From: Pseudomonas sp.
Lineage (GTDB): Bacteria > Pseudomonadota > Gammaproteobacteria > Pseudomonadales > Pseudomonadaceae
NCBI GenBank assembly: GCA_029240955.1
Contig: JARDZH010000273.1
Location: forward strand, 1 to 5,205
Reading direction: 5' to 3'
DNA length: 5,205 nt
A program made the position numbers and the translations under genes. Under the pieces are notes generated by a model. It was given only the letters and a program-made list of their open reading frames with translations, made no database searches and was not told where the DNA came from. This document shows positions 1 to 5,166 of the stretch, piece after piece; the stretch's first letter is position 1; every line of letters begins with the position of its first letter.

Positions 1-69
1 GTTGAGCAGCATCCTAAGATGGAAGGACGCCAGCTGATCATGGTCATCGCCCCGAAAAAGAAGAAGTAA
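1..69 (+). CDS. infC: Translation initiation factor IF3, C-terminal end (partial)
   Basis: The window opens inside a reading frame of 22 codons ending in TAA at 67-69. The tail reads HPKMEGRQLIMVIAPKKKK, which matches the conserved end of bacterial IF3 (PKMEGR, then a hydrophobic strand, then a lysine-rich tail). IF3 binds the 30S subunit, keeps it apart from 50S and checks start-codon and initiator-tRNA pairing. Only the last part of the C-terminal domain, which does the 30S binding, is visible; the start lies upstream. Its position directly before rpmI and rplT is the classical infC-rpmI-rplT operon, which supports the call. Nothing looks broken in the visible part. Confidence 0.93.
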   Translation, partial: VEQHPKMEGRQLIMVIAPKKKK

Positions 70-129
70 CCACTAGGGCACGGCAGGCCTTGCGGTTATG
101 TTTATCAACTGAATGCGGAGTATCCGAAC

Positions 130-324
130 ATGCCAAAGATGAAGACTAAAAGTGGTGCAGCTAAGCGGTTTCTGAAAACCGCCAACGGCATCAAGCACAA
201 GCACGCTTTCAAGAGCCACATCCTGACCAAAATGTCGACAAAGCGTAAGCGTCAACTGCGCGGTAGCAGCCTGCTGCATCCGTCTGACGTGGCTAAAGTC
301 GAGCGCATGCTGCGCCTTCGTTAA
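130..324 (+). CDS. rpmI: 50S ribosomal protein L35
   Basis: This 64-residue, strongly basic protein begins [14 protein letters not shown] and contains the L35 hallmarks [16 protein letters not shown] (about residues 30-45) and a C-terminal [12 protein letters not shown] segment. Its length is normal for L35, a small structural protein of the large ribosomal subunit. The ATG at 130 is preceded by GGAG at 117-120, a 9-base spacing, and gives the expected N-terminus. It lies 60 bp after infC and 29 bp before rplT. In E. coli, L20 represses translation of rpmI, and through coupling rplT, by binding an operator in the infC-rpmI mRNA region. Whether the same control works here cannot be read from the sequence alone. 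The gene is intact. Confidence 0.97.
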
Positions 325-353
325 TTTTGATCAAGATATAGAGGAAGTTACTC

Positions 354-701
354 ATGGCTCGTGTAAAGCGTGGCGTCATTGCCCGTAAGCGTCACAAAAA
401 GATTCTGAAACTTGCCAAAGGCTACTACGGCGCGCGTTCGCGTGTATTCCGTGTTGCCAAGCAAGCGGTCATCAAGGCAGGCCAGTACGCCTACCGCGAC
501 CGTCGTCAGAAAAAACGTCAGTTCCGCGCTCTGTGGATCGCTCGTATCAATGCTGGTGCTCGTGTTAACGGTCTGTCCTACAGCCGTTTCATCGCTACGC
601 CTACCGTGACCGTCGTCAGAAAAAACGTCAGTTCCGCGCTCTGTGGATCGCTCGTATCAACGCTGGTGCGCGTGTCAACGGTCTGTCCTACAGCCGTCTG
701 A
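354..701 (+). CDS. rplT: Aberrant L20 product as the frame actually reads (115 residues)
   Basis: Read without correction, the rplT start codon opens a 115-residue frame ending in TGA at 699-701. Residues 1-81 are authentic L20: the long basic N-terminal extension and the beginning of the globular domain. Residues 82-115 (beginning [10 protein letters not shown]) come from the second repeat copy read in the wrong frame and have no L20 character. The length is close to that of a normal L20 (118), so an automatic annotation could pass it as intact. A functional L20 is not expected, because the C-terminal globular domain, which contacts 23S rRNA and the operator, is replaced. The same locus is described as a whole under the frameshifted gene entry. 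Confidence 0.6.
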
Positions 702-706
702 TCGCT
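487..706 (+). repeat. Imperfect tandem duplication, two 110-bp units (487-596 and 597-706) inside rplT
   Basis: The two units align without gaps. I count 6 mismatches: 497/607, 551/661, 560/670, 566/676, 588/698 and 590/700. A 53-bp block (498-550 and 608-660) is identical. In L20 codons the differences are CGC/CGT, AAT/AAC, GCT/GCG and GTT/GTC, all synonymous, plus TTC/CTG (Phe79 against Leu). The unit boundary shows at most about 1 bp of shared sequence between the two sides (T at 596), so there is no flanking repeat that would explain slippage. Unit edges are therefore uncertain by about one base. Confidence 0.95.
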
Positions 707-836
707 GGCCTGAAAAAAGCGTCGATCGAGATCGACCGCAAGGTTCTGGCTGATCTGGCAGTGAACGAAAAAGCGGCGTTTGCTGCAATTGTCGAGAAAG
801 CTAAAGCCACTTTGGCCTAAGTCCCCGACAATCACC

Positions 837-853
837 GCCCCGGTTTCCGGGGC
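837..853 (+). other. Short GC-rich hairpin after rplT
   Basis: GCCCCGG (837-843), loop TTT, CCGGGGC (847-853) form a perfect 7-bp stem starting 16 bases after the ancestral rplT stop. No T-run follows, so it is not a typical rho-independent terminator by itself. It may protect the 3' end of the upstream mRNA or take part in alternative folding with the larger hairpin that follows. Confidence 0.6.
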
Positions 854-869
854 TGGTGTTGAACGTCAT

Positions 870-1940
<1,071 letters not shown>

Positions 1941-1976
1941 GTCGCACGCCCGTAACGTATCTTTCAGGAGAGCAGG

Positions 1977-4355
1977 ATGAAATTCAGTGAACAATGGCTG
2001 CGCGGCTGGGTAAGCCCGCAGGTTTCCCGCGACGAGCTGGTAGCTCGTCTTTCCATGGCCGGCCTTGAGGTCGACAGCGTGACGCCGGCCGCCGGCGAAT
2101 TCTCGGGTGTGGTCGTAGGCGAGGTGCTGAGCACCGAGCAGCACCCTGATGCCGACAAGCTTCGTGTGTGCCAGGTCAGCAACGGCAGTGAGACTTTTCA
2201 GGTGGTATGCGGCGCGCCGAACGTGCGCCCGGGCCTGAAGATTCCGTTCGCCATGATCGGGGCCGAACTGCCCGGCGACTTCAAGATCAAGAAAGCCAAG
2301 CTGCGCGGCGTCGAGTCGAACGGCATGCTGTGCTCGGCCGCCGAGCTGCAGGCCGGTGAGGGCAACGACGGCCTGATGGAGCTGGCAGCCGACGCGCCGG
2401 TCGGTCAGGACATTCGGACCTACCTTGAACTCAACGACGCGAGCATCGAAGTCGACCTGACCCCGAACCGTGGCGACTGCCTGTCGGTTGCAGGTCTTGC
2501 TCGCGAAGTCGGCGCGCTGTATGCGGCCGACGTCACTCGCCCGCAGATCGCGGCAGTCACGCCGGTGCACGACGAAACCCGTCCGGTCGAAGTGCTCGCG
2601 CCGGCCGCATGCCCGCGGTATCTGGGCCGCGTGATCCGTAACGTGGACCTGTCCCGTCCAACACCTTTGTGGATGGTCGAGCGCCTGCGTCGTTCCGATA
2701 TCCGCAGCATCGATGCCGCCGTCGATATCACGAACTACGTGATGCTCGAACTGGGTCAGCCTCTGCATGCATTCGATCTGGCCGAAATCAACGGCGGGAT
2801 TCGCGTGCGCATGGCGGAAGAGGGCGAGAAGCTGGTACTGCTCGATGGCCAGGAAGTCAGCCTGCGCGCCGACACGCTGGTCATTGCCGACCATCAACGT
2901 GCGCTGGCCATCGCCGGTATCATGGGTGGCGAACACAGCGGTGTAACCACCAGCACCCGCGACATCTTTCTGGAAAGCGCATTCTTCGACACCATCTCGG
3001 TCGCTGGCAAGGCGCGTTCGTACGGCCTGCACACCGATGCTTCGCACCGTTACGAGCGTGGCGTCGACTGGCAGCTGGCTCGCGAGGCGATGGAGCGCGC
3101 GACCGGCCTGCTGCTGGAAATCACCGGCGGTGAAGCAGGTCCTGTGATCGAAGCGGTCAGCGAACAGCACCTGCCTTCGGTTGCGCCGGTTACTCTGCGC
3201 GCCAGCCGCGTCGAGCAAATGCTGGGCCTGGTCATCGAAACGGCCGAGATCGAGCGCCTGCTCAACGCGCTGGGTCTCAAGGTTTCCGGCGACGGTGAAG
3301 GCCAGTGGCGCGTTGAAGTGCCAAGTCATCGTTTCGACATCAGTCTGGAAGTGGACCTGATCGAGGAGCTCGCTCGTCTGTACGGTTACAACCGGCTGCC
3401 GGTTCGTTACCCGCAAGCGCGTCTGGCACCGCAGGCCAAGGCCGAAGCGAAAGGCGACCTGCCGGAGCTGCGCCGTCTGCTGGTCGCTCGCGGATATCAG
3501 GAAGCGATCACCTACAGCTTCATCGATCCAAAATGGTTCGAGCTGTTCAGCCCCGGCACTCAGCCTCTGCTGCTTGCCAACCCCATCTCCAATGACATGG
3601 CGGCGATGCGCTCGTCGTTGTGGCCGGGTCTGGTCAAAGCGTTGCAGCACAACCTCAATCGCCAGCAGGATCGCGTCCGCATGTTCGAAAGCGGTCTGCG
3701 CTTCGTCGGCCAGTTGGGCGAACTGAAGCAAGAGCCGATGCTGGCGGGCGTCGTGTGCGGCAGCCGTCTGCCGGAAGGCTGGGCACAGGGCCGCGATGTG
3801 GTCGACTTCTTCGACGTCAAGGCAGACGTGGAAGCGGTACTGGGTTTCGCCGGCGCTCTGGACGATTTCACGTTCTCGCCCGGTCAGCATCCAGCGCTTC
3901 ATCCGGGTCAGACCGCGCGCATCGAGCGCGACGGTCGAGAAGTCGGTTTCCTTGGCGCGATTCATCCGGAACTGGCGAGAACCCTGGGGCTGGACCGTCC
4001 GGTATTCGTGTTCGAGCTGGTGCTGGCTGAAGTGGCTACCGGTCGTCTGCCGAAATTCCACGAGTTGTCTCGCTTCCCGGAAGTGCGCCGCGATCTGGCG
4101 CTGCTGGCCGACCGTGACGTAGCGGCGAGCGCCGTTCTCGACGTGATCCGCGAAAATGCCGGGGAATGGCTGACAGACCTCAGGCTATTTGACGTCTATC
4201 AGGGTAAAGGCATTGATCCGCATAGAAAAAGCCTTGCAGTCGGCTTGACCTGGCAGCATCCATCGCGCACTCTTAATGACGATGAGGTAAACGCAACCAC
4301 ACTTGCTATCCTCACCTCACTTGAGGAGAGGTTAAACGCCACGTTAAGGAAGTAG
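1977..4355 (+). CDS. pheT: Phenylalanyl-tRNA synthetase, beta subunit
   Basis: This 792-residue protein is of normal length for long bacterial PheT. Domains in order: N-terminal segment; OB-fold tRNA-binding domain, about 39-148 (HPDADKLRVCQV, VVCGAPNVRPG, GVESNGMLCS); B3/B4 domain, about 211-385, which holds the Tyr-tRNA-Phe editing site in the family (SIDAAVDITNYVMLELGQPL, HAFD); B5 domain, about 400-475; non-catalytic synthetase-like core, about 490-690; and FDX-ACB anticodon-binding domain, about 697-790 (SRFPEVRRDLALL, VYQGKG, LTWQHPSRTL). It pairs with PheS in the alpha2-beta2 enzyme. AGGAG at 1966-1970 lies 6 bases before the ATG. The last 60 or so codons look less GC-rich than the rest, near the junction with ihfA. 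No frameshift or missing domain is seen. Confidence 0.98.
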   Translation: MKFSEQWLRGWVSPQVSRDELVARLSMAGLEVDSVTPAAGEFSGVVVGEVLSTEQHPDADKLRVCQVSNGSETFQVVCGAPNVRPGLKIPFAMIGAELPGDFKIKKAKLRGVESNGMLCSAAELQAGEGNDGLMELAADAPVGQDIRTYLELNDASIEVDLTPNRGDCLSVAGLAREVGALYAADVTRPQIAAVTPVHDETRPVEVLAPAACPRYLGRVIRNVDLSRPTPLWMVERLRRSDIRSIDAAVDITNYVMLELGQPLHAFDLAEINGGIRVRMAEEGEKLVLLDGQEVSLRADTLVIADHQRALAIAGIMGGEHSGVTTSTRDIFLESAFFDTISVAGKARSYGLHTDASHRYERGVDWQLAREAMERATGLLLEITGGEAGPVIEAVSEQHLPSVAPVTLRASRVEQMLGLVIETAEIERLLNALGLKVSGDGEGQWRVEVPSHRFDISLEVDLIEELARLYGYNRLPVRYPQARLAPQAKAEAKGDLPELRRLLVARGYQEAITYSFIDPKWFELFSPGTQPLLLANPISNDMAAMRSSLWPGLVKALQHNLNRQQDRVRMFESGLRFVGQLGELKQEPMLAGVVCGSRLPEGWAQGRDVVDFFDVKADVEAVLGFAGALDDFTFSPGQHPALHPGQTARIERDGREVGFLGAIHPELARTLGLDRPVFVFELVLAEVATGRLPKFHELSRFPEVRRDLALLADRDVAASAVLDVIRENAGEWLTDLRLFDVYQGKGIDPHRKSLAVGLTWQHPSRTLNDDEVNATTLAILTSLEERLNATLRK

Positions 4356-4358
4356 CGT

Positions 4359-4661
4359 ATGGGGGCTCTGACGAAAGCTGAAATGGCCGAACGTCTGTAT
4401 GAAGAGCTGGGCCTGAATAAACGAGAAGCCAAGGAATTGGTCGAGCTGTTCTTTGAGGAAATCAGGCACGCTCTGGAAGATAACGAGCAGGTGAAGTTGT
4501 CCGGTTTCGGCAACTTCGACCTGCGAGATAAACGCCAGCGGCCTGGGAGGAATCCCAAGACCGGTGAAGAGATCCCGATCACTGCGCGTCGAGTGGTCAC
4601 CTTTCGTCCAGGGCAGAAGTTGAAGGCCCGAGTTGAGGCTTATGCTGGAACCAAGTCATAA
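4359..4661 (+). CDS. ihfA: Integration host factor, alpha subunit
   Basis: This 100-residue protein is a DNABII-family subunit that pairs with IHF-beta to bend DNA sharply at specific sites, supporting sigma-54 promoters, recombination and nucleoid structure. The dimerising helices are at about 4-45 ([20 protein letters not shown], then [11 protein letters not shown]). The GFGNF turn is at 49-53. The DNA-binding beta arm is at 62-75 ([14 protein letters not shown]), and its Pro66 corresponds to the intercalating Pro65 of E. coli IHF-alpha. The arm distinguishes it from generic HU, and position after pheT is the standard ihfA location. The ATG at 4359 is 3 bp after the pheT stop, with AAGGA at 4346-4350 inside pheT, so translation is probably coupled. 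It may also have its own promoter within pheT, which I could not establish. Confidence 0.97.
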
Positions 4662-4998
4662 CGACGAGCTGCCGCCGATCCCAGGCAAACGCTACTTCAC
4701 CATCGGTGAAGTCAGCGAGCTTTGTGCGGTAAAACCGCACGTTCTGCGCTACTGGGAGCAGGAGTTTCCTCAACTCAACCCCGTCAAGCGACGCGGAAAC
4801 CGGCGGTATTATCAGCGCCAGGATGTGCTGATGATCCGCCAGATCCGTGGTCTGCTTTACGATCAAGGTTTTACCATCGGTGGAGCGCGCCTTCGGCTCT
4901 CCAGCGGTGAGCCTAAGGACGATACCCAGCAGTACAAGCAGATGATCCGGCAGATGATTGCCGAACTGGAAGATGTGTTGGTGGTGCTCCGTACCTGA
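4642..4998 (+). CDS. Small MerR-family transcriptional regulator
   Basis: This 118-residue protein has an N-terminal MerR winged helix-turn-helix: [20 protein letters not shown] (residues 18-37), then WEQEF, and a wing around 48-58 ([11 protein letters not shown]). The second HTH part continues to about residue 87 ([20 protein letters not shown]). A short C-terminal helix, about 96-116, probably forms the dimer coiled coil. There is no effector-binding domain and no Cys cluster of the metal-sensing type; the only Cys is at 28, so the signal it senses, if any, is unknown. I chose the ATG at 4642 over an upstream TTG at 4633: it gives a natural N-terminus, though its Shine-Dalgarno (GAGG, 4635-4638) is close. 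It overlaps ihfA by 20 bp, indicating co-transcription and coupling. Targets cannot be inferred. Confidence 0.92.
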
Positions 4999-5035
4999 GT
5001 CCAGTCAGATACTTCCATAATTCAAAAGCTTAGGG

Positions 5036-5041
5036 TATATT
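5036..5041 (+). promoter_or_regulatory. Possible -10 element of a tRNA-Pro promoter
   Basis: TATATT at 5036-5041 matches the sigma-70 -10 consensus in 5 of 6 positions and lies in the AT-rich 75-bp gap between the MerR gene and the tRNA. The best -35 candidate (CTTCCA, 5012-5017, 18-bp spacing) is weak. A start near 5048 would give a tRNA leader of about 25 bases. No terminator separates the MerR gene from the tRNA, so read-through is also possible. Confidence 0.35.
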
Positions 5042-5073
5042 CCTCATCGCTTTATCAAGTTGTAACGCCTAGT

Positions 5074-5150
5074 CGGGGCGTAGCGCAGTCCGGTAGCGCA
5101 CTAGCATGGGGTGCTAGGGGTCGAGTGTTCGAATCACTCCGTCCCGACCA
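5074..5150 (+). tRNA. tRNA-Pro (anticodon GGG)
   Basis: The 77-base sequence folds into a full cloverleaf. The acceptor stem pairs 5074-5080 (CGGGGCG) with 5140-5146 (CGTCCCG), with one G-U pair at 5078/5142. The D stem is GCGC/GCGC. The anticodon stem is CTAGC/GCTAG (5101-5105 and 5113-5117) with loop ATGGGGT, placing anticodon GGG at 5108-5110 and G at position 37, as usual in tRNA-Pro. The T stem is GAGTG/CACTC with loop TTCGAAT. The discriminator is A and CCA is encoded (5148-5150). A C1-G72 first pair is also typical of bacterial tRNA-Pro. It reads CCC and CCU proline codons. Confidence 0.97.
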
Positions 5151-5166
5151 TATATTTCAATGACTT

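What the first reader, a model, noticed from the sequence alone, without database searches (positions are those of the whole stretch)
354..820. Essential-type ribosomal gene rplT is broken by a 110-bp internal tandem duplication
Units 487-596 and 597-706 repeat part of rplT and shift the frame by -1, so L20 stops being L20 after residue 81 and terminates at 699-701. The rest of the true C-terminus is intact downstream in another frame. Deleting one unit restores a perfect 118-residue L20. L20 is a core 50S assembly protein and the repressor of its own operon in E. coli, and is normally single-copy, so a real lesion would need compensation. All other genes in the window look healthy. Either this is an assembly or strain-mixture error, or the strain has another L20 source or a rescue mechanism.
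Basis: partly seen in the sequence, partly recalled or inferred. Interest (0 to 1): 0.7.

Follow-up and report, generated by a model that had tools for sequence, protein, structure and literature searches.

The report
False duplication in a Pseudomonas ribosomal gene
A ribosomal gene on this short Pseudomonas DNA fragment looks broken by a repeated 110-base stretch, but the two repeats are two different natural versions of the same gene piece, so this is most likely an error made when the fragment was pieced together and not a real mutation.

Summary
On a 5205-nt Pseudomonas contig, rplT carries a 110-nt tandem repeat (486-595/596-705; 104 of 110 identical) that shifts the frame. The open frame ends at 699-701, and the rest of the L20 C-terminus lies in another frame. 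At the six positions where the units differ, both bases are natural variants among 69 distinct relatives' genes, and neither unit carries a private base at any of its 110 sites. Five of six are third codon positions; the sixth belongs to a Phe/Leu codon (Phe in 59, Leu in 10 of the 69). The units thus look like two alleles shaped by selection as L20, not a copy that decayed after duplication. The junction shares one base. Its pattern gave no hit in the species-genome collection, and 20 of 20 close genomes hold one unit. Best explanation: overlapping ends from two co-occurring related lineages were joined without merging. Reads and the source genome are not available, so the artefact is inferred, not shown. 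Interest is low.

The parts
354..701 (+). open frame of broken rplT: L20 residues 1-81, then 34 out-of-frame residues, stop at 699-701
   Evidence: PF00453 positions 1-80
486..595 (+). repeat unit 1, allele with Phe codon at L20 residue 79; one base from the nearest relative
596..705 (+). repeat unit 2, allele with Leu codon at the same residue; three bases from the nearest relative
594..598 (+). junction between the two units; one shared base (T at 596)
   Evidence: offset-110 self comparison
596..820 (+). L20 C-terminal coding part in another frame than 354-701, ending in a stop at 818-820
   Evidence: PF00453 positions 43-107

Best explanation
The repeat is a false tandem duplication. Shown: two copies of the same 110-nt part of rplT, each made only of natural variants and differing like two alleles, stand head to tail with an abrupt junction, and relatives have one copy. 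Inferred: the sample held two related Pseudomonas lineages (strains or close species). Assembly of the well-conserved rplT stopped from both sides, leaving a left sequence ending at about 595 in one allele and a right sequence starting at the place equivalent to 486 in the other. The ends overlap by 110 nt with six mismatches, so they were not merged but placed next to each other and joined. The frameshift follows only because 110 is not a multiple of three. In the living cells rplT is probably intact.
For: (1) All 12 states at the six differing sites occur in relatives, each in at least 6 of 69 distinct rplT genes, and neither unit has a private base. The same holds with a filter that does not use unit 1 (68 genes) and without a filter (75 genes). 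Only 28 of 330 possible single changes from either unit give a state seen in at least two relatives; with transitions weighted, the chance that six independent changes all do so is about 1.5e-5, or about 1e-4 if the two sites in one codon count as one event. (2) Five of six differences are at third codon positions (my own binomial with one third each gives P about 0.018), and the sixth belongs to a codon that is Phe in 59 and Leu in 10 of the 69. (3) The junction has one base of shared sequence. (4) The junction pattern had 0 hits in genome contigs. In 20 of 20 close genomes the window splits at 595/596 and the two sides overlap by 110-111 bases in the genome, i.e. one unit. (5) A protein search with the junction part gave 3 hits among 7 candidates; only the window's own record has this junction. 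That record lies on one contig of 5205 bases, the window itself. (6) The other two hits, P0002 and P0003, are metagenome L20 records with different frameshifts near residue 40, so broken records of this conserved gene recur. (7) Such errors are described: adjacent placing of divergent haplotype contigs as false duplications (PMC2864568, passages) and duplicate overlap sequence left at scaffold joins in metagenome assemblies (PMC7111523, passages).
Against: No reads, coverage or assembly graph were available, so the error was not seen directly, and no second lineage was shown in the sample. In the case described in PMC7111523 Ns stand between the overlapping flanks; here there are none, and I cannot name the assembler. 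Both flanks resemble the same set of genomes (10 of the top 12 loci shared between left flank and pheT), so the two lineages would have to be near each other, although six differences in 110 nt is about the mean between the 69 relatives (5.4). The correlation of unit 2 with the right flank is weak (0.41 with the rplT 3' part, 0.33 with pheT). The allele test does not by itself separate an artefact from a real recombination. The broken frame keeps the N-terminal domain, and in E. coli a C-terminally truncated L20 kept part of its activity in a bipA suppression assay (PMC6962249, passages), so a real lesion need not abolish all function.
Confidence: 0.85

Rival explanations
1. Library chimera: amplification or ligation during library making (template switching, multiple displacement amplification) joined fragments of two lineages, and the assembly then followed the chimeric molecules.
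For: Abrupt junction with one shared base and two different alleles fit; it does not need a joiner that accepts mismatches.
Against: The join falls on the same gene in the same direction at a 110-base offset, which a random chimera would seldom give; it would have to win over the normal molecules in the assembly (both inference).
Confidence: 0.08
2. Real lesion: the cell's rplT is broken by a tandem duplication or by a misplaced recombination between lineages, and L20 comes from a second intact copy elsewhere or is partly supplied by the truncated protein.
For: The DNA as given is broken. The window's genome is not held, so a second copy is not excluded. A C-terminally truncated E. coli L20 kept part of its activity in one assay (PMC6962249, passages).
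Against: A plain duplication that decayed does not explain that all six differences are natural variants. Of 398 genus genomes 395 have one L20 match, one has none and two have two, of which one is a frame-split single gene and the other has a weak second match with a stop. [quoted passage not shown]
Confidence: 0.05
3. Real lesion rescued by -1 ribosomal frameshifting at the heptamer A AAA AAC at 620-626, giving an L20 with a repeated inner stretch.
For: In the shifted frame the heptamer has the X XXY YYZ phase, and a -1 shift leads into the downstream L20 frame. The RNA after it folds slightly better than shuffles (z -1.71, 12 of 200 shuffles as good).
Against: The heptamer is there anyway as part of the coding sequence: 111 of 177 fetched loci hold CAGAAAAAACGT (several loci are from the same genome). 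No Shine-Dalgarno-like word was found in 561-640. A protein with about 37 extra inner residues is unlikely to fit 23S rRNA (inference).
Confidence: 0.01

Closest known systems
False segmental duplication from divergent haplotype contigs (Kelley and Salzberg 2010, PMC2864568; abstract start and passages seen)
   Same: Overlapping copies of one divergent locus placed next to each other, looking like a recent duplication.
   Different: Described for diploid genomes; here two bacterial lineages would stand for the haplotypes, and the overlap is only 110 nt.
Local assembly errors in metagenome-assembled genomes (PMC7111523; abstract start and passages seen)
   Same: Overlap between flanking sequences left as duplicate sequence at a join; co-existing close strains named as the most pronounced cause of fragmentation.
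   Different: Their example has Ns at the join; here there are none.
Ribosomal protein L20 (bL20, Pfam PF00453), gene rplT of the infC-rpmI-rplT cluster
   Same: Gene order and both pieces of the protein match.
   Different: The open frame covers profile positions 1-80 only; positions 43-107 lie in another frame.

Membership tests
intact bL20 / rplT | one open frame covering the whole L20 profile | tested here: not met
   354-701 covers 1-80 of 107; 596-817 covers 43-107 of 107 in another frame
intact bL20 / rplT | position between rpmI and pheS | tested here: met
   pieces of the window found in the same loci of relatives
false duplication from two alleles | copies differ by natural variants between lineages | tested here: met
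   12 of 12 states found among 69 distinct relatives' genes, no private base
false duplication from two alleles | duplication absent from relatives | tested here: met
   20 of 20 close genomes have one unit; junction pattern 0 hits in genome contigs
false duplication from two alleles | no reads span the join | not testable with these tools
   no reads held
false duplication from two alleles | a second lineage is present in the same sample | not testable with these tools
real tandem duplication in one lineage | units identical, or differing by changes not sorted by selection as L20 | tested here: not met
   six differences, all natural variants
real tandem duplication in one lineage | repeat or microhomology at the edges | tested here: inconclusive
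   one shared base; duplications without longer homology exist
programmed -1 frameshifting | slippery heptamer in phase | tested here: met
   A AAA AAC at 620-626, but present in many relatives for coding reasons
programmed -1 frameshifting | stimulating element (upstream Shine-Dalgarno-like word or strong downstream structure) | tested here: inconclusive
   no such word in 561-640; downstream fold z -1.71, 12 of 200 shuffles as good

The most novel reading that the evidence does not exclude
A Pseudomonas population truly carries an inter-allelic rplT duplication, and ribosomes read through it by a -1 shift at the A AAA AAC heptamer (620-626), or the cell lives on a second rplT or on the truncated protein, making a strain with an altered or relocated bL20 gene.
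Probability: 0.02. Interest if true: 0.7.

Novelty: not a real feature. Interest (0 to 1): 0.06.

Why it matters
If real, it would be an unusual case of an early 50S assembly protein gene broken in a Pseudomonas. As an artefact it is a useful caution: broken core genes on short contigs of possibly mixed samples should first be tested for allele mixing, and comparing the two copies with standing variation in relatives does that from sequence alone.

Tried and rejected
Own-genome search for a second rplT: no genome is held. Plasmid collection with 1-1000: two Proteus mirabilis records at 77% over 46% of the query. Rfam scan at gathering threshold: no match. Junction pattern in genome contigs: 0 hits. 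Right flank over 398 genus genomes: 210 could not be scored and were left out by the tool, 188 of 188 scored had a match; I then searched 20 close genomes that I chose by handle; they are not strictly the 20 nearest. Three genomes had two DNA matches to window 1-595 (G037, G112, G268); the second matches are 25-30 bases long and look like chance. Left-versus-right origin: both flanks resemble the same group of genomes, which includes Pseudomonas cerasi, so a chimera between distant genera or groups was rejected. Internal restart of the C-terminal part: in the downstream L20 frame from 560 to 820 there is no ATG, one GTG (761) and one TTG (812), far inside, so rejected. Five paper searches touched on how essential rplT is (listings); I read no direct statement for Pseudomonas or for deletion in E. 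coli; that rplT is essential in E. coli is my recollection. PMC12548448 lists rplT among protein-synthesis genes with CRISPRi knockdown phenotypes in Clostridioides difficile (passage). I ran no structure prediction.

Full report
What is there. The window is a Pseudomonas contig with the 3' end of infC, rpmI (130-324), rplT (354-820), pheS (924-1940), pheT (1977-4355), an HU/IHF-type gene (4359-4661; ihfA by position, a recalled name), a MerR-type gene (4633-4998) and tRNA-Pro(GGG) (5074-5150). The protein record that matches the broken frame exactly lies on one contig of 5205 bases, so the window is the whole contig. No genome is held for it. Among the 80 loci kept by a PheT search the nearest is Pseudomonas cerasi, 95% in protein; in DNA the nearest of 20 searched genomes is 89% over 596-5156.

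The observation. rplT contains a 110-nt tandem repeat, 486-595 and 596-705, with 104 of 110 identical. The frame opened at 354 runs to 699-701, 115 residues, of which 81 are L20 (PF00453 positions 1-80). The piece 596-817 in its own frame matches positions 43-107.

Relatives have one unit. In 20 of 20 close genomes the window splits at 595/596, and the two sides overlap by 110-111 bases in the genome. Of 398 genomes of the genus, 397 have an L20 match over the curated cut-off: 395 have exactly one match, G038 and G390 have two, and G243 (2.9 Mb) has none. The list of places is capped; the rows shown there all cover positions 1-107 without a stop. In the per-genome table only G038 (7.1e-31) and G361 (2.4e-43) have a best E-value above 1.3e-46. 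G038's second match is the rest of a frame-split single gene, and G390's is a weak match under the cut-off with a stop inside. The rplT stretches of G038 and G361 differ from that of L001 by single-base gaps in runs of A, which look like sequencing errors (my inference). The junction pattern gave no match in genome contigs. In a check of 164 fetched loci, 151 had an L20 frame by my motif, all of 117-121 residues; the other 13 were not examined further.

The two units look like two alleles. From 177 fetched loci, 118 had an L20 frame of 118 residues; 112 lay within 12% of window 354-595 (unit 1 included) and 6 were dropped; the 112 give 69 distinct sequences of rplT plus 60 nt upstream. At all six differing sites both the unit 1 and the unit 2 base occur among the 69; the rarer of the two occurs 10, 15, 9, 31, 6 and 10 times. 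Neither unit has a base at any of 110 sites that is absent from the relatives. The result is the same with a filter on 354-485 only (68 sequences) and without a filter (75 sequences). The nearest relative differs from unit 1 at one site and from unit 2 at three. Only 28 of 330 single changes from either unit lead to a state seen in at least two relatives. With transitions weighted the share is about 0.16, so six independent changes would all do so with a chance of about 1.5e-5; two of the six sites lie in one codon, and with five events the figure is about 1e-4. That codon is Phe in unit 1 and Leu in unit 2; among the 69 it is Phe in 59 and Leu in 10. Six differences is close to the mean pairwise difference among the 69, 5.4. 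A copy that arose by duplication in one cell and then decayed would not be expected to look like this. The join is therefore probably between two lineages. This test does not by itself separate an artefact from a biological recombination.

Why artefact rather than biology. The junction shares one base, so homologous recombination is not indicated. [quoted passage not shown] The contig is short and without a genome. Two further L20 records from JGI, P0002 (82 aa, contig 2232) and P0003 (76 aa, contig 5179), are frameshifted at other places near residue 40; I take them as assembly errors too, which is inference. False duplications of this sort are described for divergent haplotypes (PMC2864568, passages) and duplicated overlap at scaffold joins for metagenomes, with co-existing strains named as a chief difficulty (PMC7111523, passages).

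Results against or neutral. Both flanks resemble the same group of genomes (10 of the top 12 loci in common), so the contig gives no sign of two distant species. Rank correlations over 68 distinct loci (of 74 taken) tie unit 1 to the left flank (0.61) and unit 2 hardly to it (0.16); unit 2 reaches 0.41 with the rplT 3' part and 0.33 with pheT. This fits but is weak. In E. coli a C-terminally truncated L20 restored growth of a bipA mutant, though less than the whole protein (PMC6962249, passages), so the kept N-terminal part might not be dead. No reads could be examined and no second lineage could be shown.

A coincidence worth telling. After the junction, the frame in use meets A AAA AAC at 620-626 in the phase of a -1 slippery site, and a -1 shift would enter the downstream L20 frame. 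The same heptamer lies out of that phase in unit 1 (510), and 111 of 177 fetched loci hold the surrounding 12-mer, because it encodes Gln-Lys-Lys-Arg. No Shine-Dalgarno-like word was found in 561-640, and the fold after it is modest (z -1.71). I take it as chance.

Verdict. It is probably not a real lesion, and of low interest.

Noticed in passing
870-905: Inverted repeat between rplT and pheS; the stretch matches the opposite strand at its own place in 20 of 20 genomes searched. It looks like a conserved hairpin, a possible terminator or attenuator before pheST; the simple terminator scan did not list it.
   Followed up: no
620-626: A AAA AAC heptamer in phase for a -1 shift after the junction; the surrounding 12-mer is in 111 of 177 fetched loci for coding reasons.
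   Followed up: yes
L174 (G361) and L175/L176 (G038): rplT frame broken by single-base gaps in runs of A in two genomes, probably sequencing errors.
   Followed up: partly
P0002 and P0003 (protein records, no locus): Two JGI L20 records with different frameshifts near residue 40.
   Followed up: partly
4633-4661: The MerR-type frame, with the TTG start given by the ORF list, overlaps the end of the HU/IHF-type gene; the true start is not settled.
   Followed up: no
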